44,084 nucleotides of DNA. It comes from Bacillota bacterium (lineage in GTDB: Bacteria > Bacillota > Sulfobacillia > Sulfobacillales > Sulfobacillaceae). Both the position numbers and the translations under genes were made by a program. Position 1 is the stretch's first letter; each line of letters begins with the position of its first letter. Of the stretch, positions 1 to 13,299 are shown piece after piece. Location: assembly GCA_023475835.1 (NCBI GenBank), contig JAMCVM010000034.1:1-44084 (forward strand). The letters are read 5' to 3'. Under the pieces are notes generated by a model. The model was not told where the DNA came from and made no database searches. It saw nothing but the letters and a program-made list of their open reading frames with translations.

Positions 1-148
1 GACCCACATCGCATTCCCCCGTCGCCACCACGTGGCGAAAGGAGCGACGGGGCATCTTGATGAGGGCCCAGTAACACTGGGGCTCAGGGCACCACCGACG
101 GGACACCGATGGGCGTTTCCTGCCATCCTTCTCCTGCCGGGATCTTGA
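1..148 (+). CDS. TnpB (IS605/IS1341 type) C-terminal end, partial
   Basis: The frame starting at base 2 is open to a TGA at 146-148. Its central part, a VAKGATGHLDEG segment, matches the VKGATGHLEEG segment at the end of the TnpB pseudogene on the minus strand near 12600-12640. I infer that this is the last part of an RNA-guided TnpB nuclease gene whose body lies left of the window. The other frame also resembles its counterpart in the second copy (both end GERSDGAS then TGA at 58-60), so the true stop is uncertain. No catalytic motif is inside the window, so the call rests on homology to the second copy and on the adjoining structured RNA. Confidence 0.4.
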   Translation, partial: THIAFPRRHHVAKGATGHLDEGPVTLGLRAPPTGHRWAFPAILLLPGS

Positions 149-308
149 GCGGGGAGCCGGGGAAACGCATCCCGACTCCATGGGGCGGAAGCCACCCCCG
201 AGCAGACAATGAGCTTTACAGCGAGTCCTGGGGCTCCTGTGAGGACTGCGGGTCCCATAAGGGGCTGAGAAAAGCCGAAAGAGATTATTGTAGGTTTTTC
301 TAACCAGG
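10..308 (+). ncRNA. TnpB-associated omega/reRNA scaffold and element right end
   Basis: This block aligns almost end to end with the minus-strand block 12369-12660. Hairpins are preserved although their sequences differ. Stem 154-161/171-178 (8 positions, loop GAAACGCAT) pairs in both copies with two compensatory base pairs. Stem 67-71/77-81 around TAACA shows two more. Stem 225-229/242-246 (GTCCT/AGGAC) is invariant. Similarity stops abruptly after TTTTTCTAACCAGG at 308, which I take as the right end of the element. In the TnpB family, the transcript running from the gene's 3' end to the right end forms the guide scaffold, and flanking DNA supplies the guide. The RNA call follows from that family knowledge; expression is not shown. 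Confidence 0.62.
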
Positions 309-7199: not shown

Positions 7200-7380
7200 T
7201 CCCAGGCGTAACTGTTCGAGAAGCTCTCAGTAGTGAAACTCCCTGAGGATTTGATGCCCCTCAGCTTGGGCCAAGTTTTTCTCCGCATTTAGACCACGGT
7301 CTACGCGAGCCCCGCAGTTGGAGGCATGCTATCTCCGATTCTTCAAAATGAAAGCGTGTCGCTTCTAGCCACCACAACAA
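7200..7380 (-). pseudogene. relic of a TnpB/OrfB C-terminal zinc ribbon (IS200/IS605 family)
   Basis: On the minus strand the peptide SNCGARVDRGLNAEKNLAQA matches the end of the TnpB zinc ribbon, whose usual form is CxxCGxxxDRDxNAAxNL. The upstream half (RFHFEESEIAC) lies in another frame, and removing one C in TGCCTCCAACTGC would join the two halves. A stop interrupts the peptide soon after, at FHY. The rest of the nuclease is not recognisable, so this is an old degraded insertion. It belongs to a different TnpB group from the copies at the left end and near 13000, whose C-termini look different. Confidence 0.55.
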
Positions 7381-8396
7381 CCCCATGGACTCGAAGGAGA
7401 AAATGGACGGACTTCCCGCGCCTCGACCCGTATTTTTTGCGCATTGTACAAGCCTCTGCTTAACCGCATAAATCCTGAATTGTTAAATCGCGTAGATGAG
7501 ATGGCAGTTCTTGAGCATCCCTCATCCCCGTGGTAATTAAACCCTGGCGGATTGCTGATGTTTTTTCTTGAACTTAGGCGGTTCCAAAGGCCTTTAAAGA
7601 ATCTTCGATACGCCACTTGCGCATGGATGATCGCTGTTTTCTAGGCTTTCGAAGAGACACGTTGAGTCCACGGATAGGCGCGGGCACCCGTTTGCCGGAT
7701 CCACCGGTCAAAAGCATCCGCGGACAGAAAAGGTAATCCTGGGTGGGATCGTGCTTGGTGGGTCACCGCATCCAAGTGATACCGGCACCCCCCGAAGGTT
7801 GGACCCATCGGTTGACGCTGCGCTGGCGTTGAGTGAATTTTCGTCCGGTCCGCTGTTAACATCAGGCTCCTCCACAATCTGAGTGTTATACTTCCGTAAC
7901 CATCCATCTGCGCGGAAAACAATCCCGATCATCGTGAAGTGTCCGAACGCCTTGATACTCCAAATATTGTCAGTGGATATAATATCTCCGATTGCTCGGA
8001 GCGCGGTGGAATTTGAATCAACCCGAAGCATCCCAACGTTCTGACGTCTTTACCGTGATGCCCAACATTTAGGGGAATCCCTGCCTCCATGGACGAATCG
8101 TTCGCAGCCAGCACTTCTCTTAGGCCCATTACGACCGACCGAGGCATGATCTCCTACCATGATTGGGTGGCCTCCCCTGGGTCGAGCGAGAAATTGCAAG
8201 TAGCGCCGTTCCGAGTGTACCCCGAAGTCGCACCGAGGTGAAGTGCCATAGCTAACCCGGCGCCATTGAGACCATCGGCAATCGATGCCATTTTTTCCGC
8301 ATTTCCCCTCATTCAATATTAGCACTCTGCTTGCAGTACGGCATAGGGTAAGCCATGGATTAGGCAAATTGGCCAGGGACCTCGAAGGCCATAAGC
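7381..8396. other. about 1 kb of decayed sequence before asnB
   Basis: Several overlapping minus-strand frames of 60-107 codons lie here with no ribosome binding site and no family I can name. Smooth stretches change frame repeatedly around 7900-8150 and 7640-7760, as in an old pseudogene. I see no RNA gene or clear promoter. Confidence 0.35.
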
Positions 8397-12078: not shown

Positions 12079-12368
12079 CCGCGGCACGGACATCGCCATT
12101 TCGATGGCATAGGGAACGCGGGTCAAAGTTGACGGTTTGATGCCAAAGCCATGGGCGTCTGTAACCCTTGCTATGTGATGGTTCCCAAGTACTCTGACGG
12201 TTTCCCAGCCATGGAAACTATATATCCGGCACTAAAGAATTTAAACTCTACAGCCCGACGAAACATGCTCAGTCACCGGAGTCGGGCGAAAATGGACGTT
12301 ATAAGATCTTTAATGCCGGCTATATATGCTCTCAAGCAAAATAAAATCCAACAGCATTGGGTCGTAGA
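12079..12368. other. 290 bp between lipL and the TnpB element end
   Basis: A small stem-loop with a TTCG tetraloop (GCCAT/ATGGC near 12096-12109) lies just after the lipL stop but lacks a T run. The rest is AT-rich, with only a doubtful 78-codon plus-strand frame. Bases 12349-12368 are where a guide would be read from on the minus strand. Confidence 0.35.
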
Positions 12369-12660
12369 CCTGGTTAGAAAAATCTAGGATAATTTCTTTC
12401 GGTTTTTCTCGGTTGCTGACGGAACCTGCAGTCCTCACCGGCGCCCCAGGACTGGACGTAAACCTCGTCGTTTGCTCGGCGGCGGCTTTCGCCCCATCGA
12501 GCGAGGATGCGTGTCCCTCGCTCACCTCCGAGGATCCCGGACGGAGAAGAGAACGGCGAACCGTTCCGGTTTCTGTTCGGTGATGCCCTCAGCCCGGGTG
12601 TTGCCCGCCCTCTTCAAGATGCCCCGTCGCTCCTTTCACCATGTGGGAATGCGGTATGGG
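12369..12660 (-). ncRNA. second TnpB-associated omega/reRNA scaffold and element right end
   Basis: Read on the minus strand this matches 10-308 (+) from GCATTCCC to the terminal TTTTTCTAACCAGG. It keeps the same stems: 12516-12523/12499-12506 around GACACGCAT, 12604-12608/12594-12598 around CAACA, and 12448-12452/12431-12435 (GTCCT/AGGAC). Differences between the copies fall in loops or are paired changes within stems. It lies at the 3' end of a broken tnpB gene and overlaps its last codons, the arrangement known for TnpB guide RNAs. Similarity to the first copy ends at 12369, taken as the element's right end. Confidence 0.62.
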
Positions 12661-13299
12661 GCATTCTGGGAACAGGATCTTGCGATCTCTTAACCATCGC
12701 CTCAAATCCTGATGACGCGATGCCAACGTCCTTGACAGGAACCGTTGAATCTGAGCCCAGGCGCTCCAATCCTTCTTGGGTACGCCACGTCGTCCCCTGG
12801 ATGCTGGGTTCGCGTGTACTGTCGTAAGGCTTTCGAGACGTTCTCGCGGCGGACTTTCAACCCCCCACGGCGTCCAATGACCAGAGTTGCCGCGTGATGG
12901 GCGATGATACCGTATCGGGGGTGATACTTGAAGCGCCCAATGGTGGAGGGATAGGCCGATGAGACCTTACGGATGGCCACGCCTTCCCGAGCCTCCTCGC
13001 GTTCAATGGCCGTCAACAAGGCGCGATAGTTAAATTGATGGGTCTGGCGATTAAACTGGCCGCTGACCTCGCGGTCGGGGAATGAATGGTAAGTCTTCGA
13101 CTACCTTTGCCAATACAAACAACCATTCGTCCGTCTGCCACCGGTAACCATGATGCCCTACGGTAAAAGGCAATCGTATATTCATTGTAATCAGTTTAAC
13201 CCTTCCCCGGTTCGGTTTTGGGCTCAATGCCCGCTCGTCGCCGGGAAGATCTAACCAAATATCGAGCCGCTAAATCGGTTCTTTTGCCAGGACTTTCAT
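12589..13299 (-). pseudogene. broken tnpB (IS605 OrfB-family RNA-guided nuclease)
   Basis: Pieces of a TnpB protein are readable in three frames. Around 13299-13090 the N-terminal/wedge region reads MKVLAKEPI, TAG at 13270-13272, RLDIWLDLPGDERA, then YRWQTDEWLFVLAKVVEDLP. After a frame change near 13085 comes FNYRALLTAIEREEAREGV, then AYPSTIGRFKYHPRYG and AATLVIGRRGG, the well-conserved AYTSxIGxxKYxxxYGxxxHxAAAxVIGRR block of TnpB. A second frame change near 12785 leads to KKDWSAWAQIQRFL and RRWLRDRK. The stretch that should hold the first RuvC aspartate is missing at the 13085 junction. A coherent frame at about 13381-13590 may be more of the N-terminus. Confidence 0.7.

What the first reader, a model, noticed from the sequence alone, without database searches (positions are those of the whole stretch)
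12589..13299. Dead tnpB beside an intact-looking guide RNA
The gene has an in-frame TAG (13270-13272), frame changes near 13085 and 12785, and lacks the segment expected to hold the first RuvC aspartate. Yet the adjoining RNA still folds like the other copy. Either the RNA has simply not decayed yet, or it is kept for use with another TnpB or for regulation.
Basis: partly seen in the sequence, partly recalled or inferred. Interest (0 to 1): 0.55.

Follow-up and report, generated by a model that had tools for sequence, protein, structure and literature searches.

The report
Decaying IS607 relic with guide-RNA remnant
This is the broken tail end of a bacterial jumping gene whose guide RNA is decaying along with its nuclease gene, so the copy itself is ordinary; the same genome, however, also holds tiny jumping elements made of little more than that guide RNA, which is the more interesting lead.

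Summary
Partly right. Window 13105-12369 (minus strand) is a 5'-truncated copy of a 2.5-kb IS607-family element (TnpA, ~506-aa TnpB, ~275-305-nt structured RNA ending in CCAGG). Only the last 29% of tnpB remains, frameshifted; 13106-13299, with the cited TAG, is not tnpB. The RNA is not intact: an 11-nt deletion, shared with a related species, removed one arm of its first stem, and in that species' contig most of the RNA is gone. It breaks 10 of 83 conserved pairs (0-6 in the 16 tnpB-linked copies that defined them); neutral decay at the rate I infer from the tnpB fragment predicts about 12. So stems and coding remnant decay alike, within error. An apparently complete element of the group lies on contig C230.

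The unexpected part: the two genomes of this genus carry at least nine minimal elements, left end plus guide RNA with no usable tnpA or tnpB. One pair is 99% identical at unrelated sites; one insertion has a precise empty site ending in GGAGG in the related species. Sister copies keep RNA pairs somewhat better than chance. They may be parasites that borrow TnpA and TnpB in trans; this is suggested, not shown.

The parts
12369..13105 (-). 5'-truncated copy of an IS607-family element (3' 727 nt of a 2526-nt element)
   Evidence: blastn and local alignment to L090, element 1800-2526
12664..13105 (-). tnpB fragment, codons ~359-506 of 506, frameshifts at about 13082 and 12780, stop position reads TGC
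   Evidence: sequence read directly
12369..12646 (-). guide-RNA (omega/re-RNA) scaffold remnant, 5' arm of stem I missing (11-nt deletion)
   Evidence: alignment A1, pair counts, same deletion in G001
12369..12373 (-). right-end terminus CCAGG
   Evidence: end of similarity among the copies listed
12353..12368 (-). presumed guide segment (flanking DNA just outside the right end)
   Evidence: position only; one other site with 2 mismatches in the genome, none with fewer
1..308 (+). second copy of the guide-RNA/right end; the contig starts at the tnpB stop codon, so its gene cannot be seen
   Evidence: keeps 81 of 83 pairs
13106..13299 (-).
   Evidence: no similarity above shuffles

Best explanation
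The feature is a dead, 5'-truncated copy of a Sulfobacillaceae IS607-family transposon. SHOWN: the full element has an IS607 TnpA, a ~506-aa TnpB and a structured region with compensatory pairs that starts just after the tnpB stop and ends at the right end (CCAGG); full copies sit directly after GGAGG. The window copy has lost its left end, tnpA and about 70% of tnpB, and its RNA lost one arm of stem I before the split from the related species. INFERRED: by analogy with IS607 TnpB systems, the RNA once guided TnpB to cut empty copies of its own insertion site next to the GGAGG motif and so kept the element in place. After truncation both parts drift at about the neutral rate; the structure still seen was inherited from the time when the copy worked, and selection does not hold it now.
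For: Truncation and homology. TnpA is NF033518 IS607 (203 bits, cut-off 110); TnpB matches TIGR01766 (37.2, cut-off 32) but is below the cut-off of NF040570 (45 against 100). RNA structure is real: 47 predicted pairs, 23 with changes on both sides, over 27 copies. End branch of this copy 0.18, the longest of 39, median 0.037. Broken pairs: 10 of 83 against 0-6 in the 16 tnpB-linked copies. tnpB fragment: private changes at codon positions 1/2/3 are 14/118, 16/130, 21/61; six other tnpB copies have 0-6 of 130-135 at position 2, from which I infer ~0.08 neutral changes per site. Simulated neutral decay at 0.084 per site gives 12.5 broken pairs, 95% range 7-20. G001 shares the 11-nt deletion; the 128-nt relic there is 88% identical while the flanking blocks over 250 nt are 93-98% (small blocks next to the junctions 68-89%), and its contig has no RNA beyond the point matching 12619 but a dispersed ~125-bp repeat instead. 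Folding z-score -0.84.
Against: For its whole distance from two near relatives the copy breaks fewer pairs than random changes would (8 against 13.6, P = 0.03; 9 against 18.1, P = 0.0035). I put this down to time spent functional before truncation, but it also fits weak retention. The rest of the RNA could lie on another, unexamined G001 contig: only 23 of 94 G001 candidates were scored (best other match to the RNA 81% over 280 nt; an 87-nt piece 83%). MAFFT slides over the 11-nt deletion, so '10 broken' is approximate, and an alternative 5' hairpin can form. The 0.08 estimate rests on an assumed ratio of position 2 to position 3 changes. Folding z-scores do not sort working from broken copies: two tnpB-fragment copies have -3.0 and -3.2, and their end branches and that of C22 are long or moderate as well (0.17, 0.055, 0.15). 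No expression data exist.
Confidence: 0.85

Rival explanations
1. The window RNA is still used in trans by the TnpB of an intact element (C230 or C239), which would cut empty versions of this site.
For: Same-group TnpB reading frames of full length in the genome: C230 and C239; RNA downstream of stem I mostly pairs; fewer broken pairs than expected for the total distance.
Against: Stem I arm deleted and left end and upstream region gone; rest of the RNA not found at the same locus of the related species; pair loss within the neutral expectation.
Confidence: 0.09
2. The RNA has become a regulator (TldR-like guide), pairing with another chromosomal site.
For: A broken nuclease beside a guide RNA is the kind of situation from which RNA-guided regulators could arise (TldR; PMC13418256, seen only as start of abstract in a search listing).
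Against: The remaining tnpB has 29% of its codons and two frameshifts; the 16-nt guide has only one other site with at most 2 mismatches in the genome, C125:6482-6497, whose neighbourhood was not examined.
Confidence: 0.02
3. For the gene-less left-end-plus-RNA elements elsewhere: the RNA part is kept only as DNA, because the right end carries TnpA binding sites, and no RNA function is selected.
For: The last ~75 nt is a frequent separate match; G021 has a ~139-nt element with both ends and only the last ~95 nt of the RNA, so a complete RNA is not needed to have both ends; L007 and L029 break 9 and 12 of 83 pairs, C222 and C26 of G001 lack one whole hairpin (10 pairs), and C74 has lost much of the RNA.
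Against: Eight of the nine keep 264-305 nt of RNA, far more than that; sister copies break fewer pairs than random.
Confidence: 0.45

Closest known systems
IS607-family insertion sequences (serine-recombinase TnpA, GG target, no target duplication)
   Same: TnpA over the NF033518 cut-off; GG at the right end and at the target, no longer duplication at the C65 empty site, as described for IS607 in PMC6188088 (passages seen)
   Different: The window copy lacks the left end and tnpA
RAGATH-18-derived reRNA / IS607 TnpB (ISFba1; PMC11061315, passages seen)
   Same: RNA lies downstream of tnpB; reported TAM 5'-AGGAG or GAGGG, and here elements sit after (A)GGAGG. That paper reports 64% (10,258/16,029) of RAGATH-18 RNAs next to IS607 TnpB, so by subtraction 36% are not
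   Different: No RAGATH-18 match in the window at gathering or in four other sources at E up to 5; structured region ~275-305 nt against a TnpB-bound RNA of 184 nt; TnpB ~506 aa against 387 aa, with His where I expect the third RuvC Asp
PATE / MITE-like end-only elements of IS200/IS605 (PMC7290912, one passage seen)
   Same: Short elements with both ends and no genes, said to be often moved by a transposase in trans; the solo elements here look alike
   Different: Different transposase class (serine recombinase), and most of a guide RNA is inside eight of the nine
Standalone trans-acting omega-RNAs reported with IscB (Altae-Tran et al. 2021; recalled, paper not held)
   Same: Guide RNA copies away from their nuclease gene
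   Different: IscB rather than IS607 TnpB; details recalled only

Membership tests
IS607 family element (the full copies to which this relic belongs) | Serine-recombinase TnpA of IS607 type | tested here: met
   C230 TnpA: NF033518 203 bits, cut-off 110; Pfam Resolvase plus MerR
IS607 family element (the full copies to which this relic belongs) | Insertion at GG without target duplication | tested here: met
   Two precise empty sites: G001:C326 for the C65 solo element and G016:C1 for the full element of G029. In four more distant genomes (67-71% identical) the GGAGG is not kept at the aligned place
IS607 family element (the window copy itself) | Left end, tnpA, complete tnpB | tested here: not met
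   Only element 1800-2526 remains
TnpB RNA-guided nuclease | TnpB/Cas12f-like fold and sequence | tested here: met
   TIGR01766 above cut-off; best Foldseek hits AsCas12f, E 6e-7 but TM-score only 0.3-0.4, from a model with pTM 0.48; NF040570 below its cut-off and no Pfam match
TnpB RNA-guided nuclease | RuvC catalytic triad D-E-D | tested here: inconclusive
   D301 and E362 invariant in 8 and 11 aligned sequences (partly the same loci); the place where I expect the third Asp is invariant His428; model too weak there (pLDDT < 50)
RAGATH-18 reRNA | Match to the Rfam model | tested here: not met
   No match in the window at gathering nor in four other sources at E up to 5
Functional omega/re-RNA (window copy) | All conserved stems present | tested here: not met
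   Stem I arm deleted; 10 of 83 pairs broken
Functional omega/re-RNA (window copy) | Transcribed and bound by TnpB | not testable with these tools
   No expression data
MITE/PATE-like non-autonomous element (solo copies, not the window copy) | Both ends, no transposase gene, several copies at unrelated sites | tested here: met
   C65/C96 99.3% identical over 565 bp with unrelated flanks; C246/C70 about 90%; no tnpA/tnpB by tblastn in seven of nine, short tnpA-start pieces in C65 and C96

The most novel reading that the evidence does not exclude
Elements made only of a TnpA-binding left end and a guide RNA are parasites of RNA-guided transposons: they borrow TnpA to move and TnpB to cut empty sites, each copy carrying its own guide for its own site. 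The window relic may show one path towards them, since its RNA outlives the nuclease gene for some time.
Probability: 0.4. Interest if true: 0.6.

Novelty: new member of a known kind. Interest (0 to 1): 0.33.

Why it matters
For the window copy, little: a decaying relic of a kind common in this family. The value lies in the system it exposes. A genus-level set of IS607 elements, fragments and gene-less guide-RNA elements, with empty sites, would let one test whether a guide RNA alone is enough to protect a transposon when TnpB is supplied by another copy.

Tried and rejected
Rejected: tnpB reaching 13299. Too weak to use: the third RuvC position in the predicted structure (pLDDT < 50). Rfam gave no family for the RNA. 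The 2.35-kb duplicated unit in G001 that ends at a solo element's right end was not explained. Empty sites were sought for nine minimal elements in four genomes (G000, G001, G002, G034; 40 of 141 and 40 of 114 candidates scored in G000 and G001) and for six full elements in eight genomes of one genus: one precise site each (C65; the G029 element). C74 has both flanks in G001 with about 170 nt and no clear element between them; at C70's site the G001 match stops 55 nt before and resumes 80 nt after the junction. The other minimal elements could not be judged, and of the other full elements I examined no junction. The fate of the RNA beyond 12619 in G001 is limited by a contig end at a dispersed repeat and by unscored candidates. 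One search used a strict right-end pattern that found ends only in type-2 copies; searches stopped half-way on type-2 copies and were done. In the tree and pair counts the copies cut by contig ends were left out, except L027, L148 and L153. The left-end count takes the best match to a pattern that itself begins with AGG, so only the GG before it is independent evidence; lower-scoring matches and the inner left-end-like stretches of C65/C96 (CGAGG) were not counted, and L093 gave none. The left-end search in the 40 other-genus regions also gave four matches with 4 mismatches that I did not count.

Full report
WHAT THE WINDOW HOLDS. Complete copies of the element there run for about 2526 nt between unrelated flanks and carry an IS607-type TnpA, a 506-aa TnpB and a structured RNA region that ends at ...ACCAGG. 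The window copy matches only positions 1800-2526, as window 13105-12369 on the minus strand. The two frameshifts are real.

IS THE RNA INTACT? Across 27 copies the RNA has a well supported fold: 47 predicted pairs, 23 with changes on both sides. I defined a fuller structure (83 pairs) on 16 copies joined to tnpB, leaving the window copy out, and scored 39 copies. Those 16 break 0-6 pairs and the window copy 10. The five type-2 tnpB copies break more (17-20) because the structure was not made on them. By eye the damage is larger: compared with functional copies (CATTCCC, then 11 more nt, then ACGTGG) the window reads CATTCCCACATGG, without the 5' arm of stem I. The window copy's end branch, 0.18, is the longest of 39 (median 0.037); C232 (0.17), C22 of G001 (0.15) and C74 (0.14) come next.

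AGE AND RATE. The related genome G001 (same genus) has the same locus split over two contigs. Flanking blocks over 250 nt are 93-98% identical, small blocks beside the junctions 68-89%, the 128-nt piece of relic 88%, with the same 11-nt deletion. Beyond the place matching 12619 its contig turns into a dispersed repeat. Other G001 matches to the RNA reach 81% over 280 nt, or 83% over an 87-nt piece, but only 23 of 94 candidates were scored. So the RNA was damaged before the two species split, and I find no orthologous remainder. In the tnpB fragment, changes private to the window copy fall at 14/118, 16/130 and 21/61 of conserved codon positions 1, 2 and 3, against 0-6 of 130-135 at position 2 in six other tnpB copies. 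Read as a functional phase followed by a neutral one, the neutral part is about 0.08 per site (my inference). Random decay of six better-kept RNAs by that much breaks 12.5 of 83 pairs on average, range 7-20; the window copy's 10 is inside. Against this: over its whole distance from two near relatives the copy breaks fewer pairs than random (8 against 13.6, P 0.03; 9 against 18.1, P 0.0035), as expected if most of that distance was travelled while functional, but also if weakly retained. Folding z-scores are -0.84 for the window copy and -2.4 to -3.1 for three tnpB-joined copies, yet -3.0 and -3.2 for two tnpB-fragment copies, so they do not decide.

COULD IT BE USED IN TRANS? Contig C230 of the same genome holds an apparently complete element: a TnpA frame of 230 codons, TnpB 506 aa, a left end after GGAGG, RNA with 81 of 83 pairs. 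C239 has a full-length TnpB too, and C203, C225 and C62 have open but contig-cut frames. So partners exist, but the window copy lacks the stem I arm and everything upstream of tnpB codon ~359. Its 16-nt guide has one other genomic site within 2 mismatches, not examined further.

GENE-LESS GUIDE-RNA ELEMENTS. By my tally of the matches (21 distinct copies), four copies are joined to long tnpB frames (C230, C239, C225, C203), two to tnpB fragments (window, C232), six have a left end joined to the RNA with no usable tnpA or tnpB (C246, C70, C154, C74, C65, C96), one is cut inside the RNA (C96:1119), and eight stop at or near contig ends and cannot be judged. C65 and C96 still carry a short remnant of the tnpA start between two left-end-like stretches. 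G001 has at least three more (C440, C222, C26; the last two lie in a 2.35-kb duplication) (20 of 37 G001 candidates were scored). Lengths are 287-562 bp. C65 and C96 are 99.3% identical over 565 bp with unrelated flanks. The C65 insertion is absent from G001, where the flanks meet at TTGGAATGGGGAGG/TTAGAC; the full element of G029 has a like empty site in G016, while four more distant genomes (67-71% identical) do not keep GGAGG there. GGAGG stands at the left end in 9 of 9 full copies whose end is set by alignment, and in 25 of 27 copies found by pattern, AGAGG in the other two (the pattern itself begins with AGG). Since in both close empty sites it is there before insertion, I read it as a target motif; the TAM reported for other IS607 TnpBs is AGGAG or GAGGG (PMC11061315, passages). 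Comparisons of sister copies break fewer pairs than random changes would: L007/L029 4 against 9.4 (P 0.026; reverse 3 against 9.0, P 0.0075), L143/L144 1 against 4.4 (P 0.038), type-2 tnpB copy against C96 1 against 6.7 (P 0.0035); L145 with L146 (which has no left end) gives 0 against 4.2 (P 0.004) one way and 2 against 4.4 (P 0.12) the other. These are among 15 comparisons, uncorrected, and a pair of tnpB-fragment copies gave P 0.06. L007 and L029 also carry more broken pairs (9 and 12) than the tnpB-linked copies, C222 and C26 lack a whole hairpin (10 pairs), and C74 has lost much of its RNA. So selection on the RNA of these elements is suggested, not shown. In 40 further regions fetched from other genera, two short left-end-to-right-end elements appear by pattern (G021 C129, about 139 nt; G024 C91, with a run of N).

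NOVELTY. The window copy is a new but ordinary member of a known kind. My literature searches (open-licence papers only, most listings capped at 8-20 titles) listed no paper, by title or abstract start, describing gene-less IS607 guide-RNA elements. Two papers that could bear on it were not held, and by subtraction from PMC11061315 36% of RAGATH-18 RNAs are not next to an IS607 TnpB.

Noticed in passing
G000 C246:2700-3065, C70 (L156), C154 (L160), C65 (L158), C96 (L159), C74 (L157); G001 C440, C222, C26: Minimal elements of left end plus guide RNA without a usable tnpA or tnpB, 287-562 bp; one pair 99% identical, one with a precise empty site in the related species.
   Followed up: partly
L007, L086, L105, L106 and others; L009 1718-1750; L147: A ~27-nt block GACGAGCTTTACAGCGAGTCCTGGGGC sits in the guide RNA of copies in G000, G001 and G010 (variants in G030) but not in most of the relatives' copies aligned; the same block is the 3' coding end of a canonical (PF07282) tnpB on C84, and a variant is inserted in frame inside the tnpB of L147. 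Module exchange between guide RNAs of different TnpB families?
   Followed up: partly
Insertion sites of the full elements (e.g. L092, L094): The target motif (A)GGAGG equals the Shine-Dalgarno consensus (recalled); in L092 and L094 the rejoined site reads AGGAGG followed shortly by ATG, so the element may prefer ribosome binding sites.
   Followed up: no
TnpB of L084, L187 and relatives, residue 428: Invariant His where I expect the third RuvC Asp of canonical TnpB, in the 8 and 11 members aligned, while D301 and E362 are invariant.
   Followed up: partly
L165:3475-5826 and L166:4895-7229 (G001): A 2.35-kb unit, 93% identical at two loci, ends at the right end of a solo guide-RNA element although its left boundary does not look like a left end of the family.
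   Followed up: partly
window 12117-12221: Part of a dispersed repeat of about 125 bp with dozens of copies in G000 and G001 (not all candidates scored).
   Followed up: no
window 12219-12243 and 12302-12326: 25-nt inverted repeat, 84% complementary, 58 nt apart, just downstream of the relic; perhaps another small mobile element.
   Followed up: no
L277 1027-1195 (G010 C18): A 48-nt tandem repeat (3.5 copies, 97%) directly before the last ~77 nt of a guide-RNA right end; similar units in L275.
   Followed up: no
G001 C361 (L146, L167): A guide-RNA copy without a left end joins what looks like the C-terminal part of an iscB gene to a cold-shock-like gene (names recalled from the sequence, not searched).
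   Followed up: no
window 7272-7448: Weak remnant of a canonical (PF07282) tnpB with two TAG codons, below the family's cut-off.
   Followed up: no
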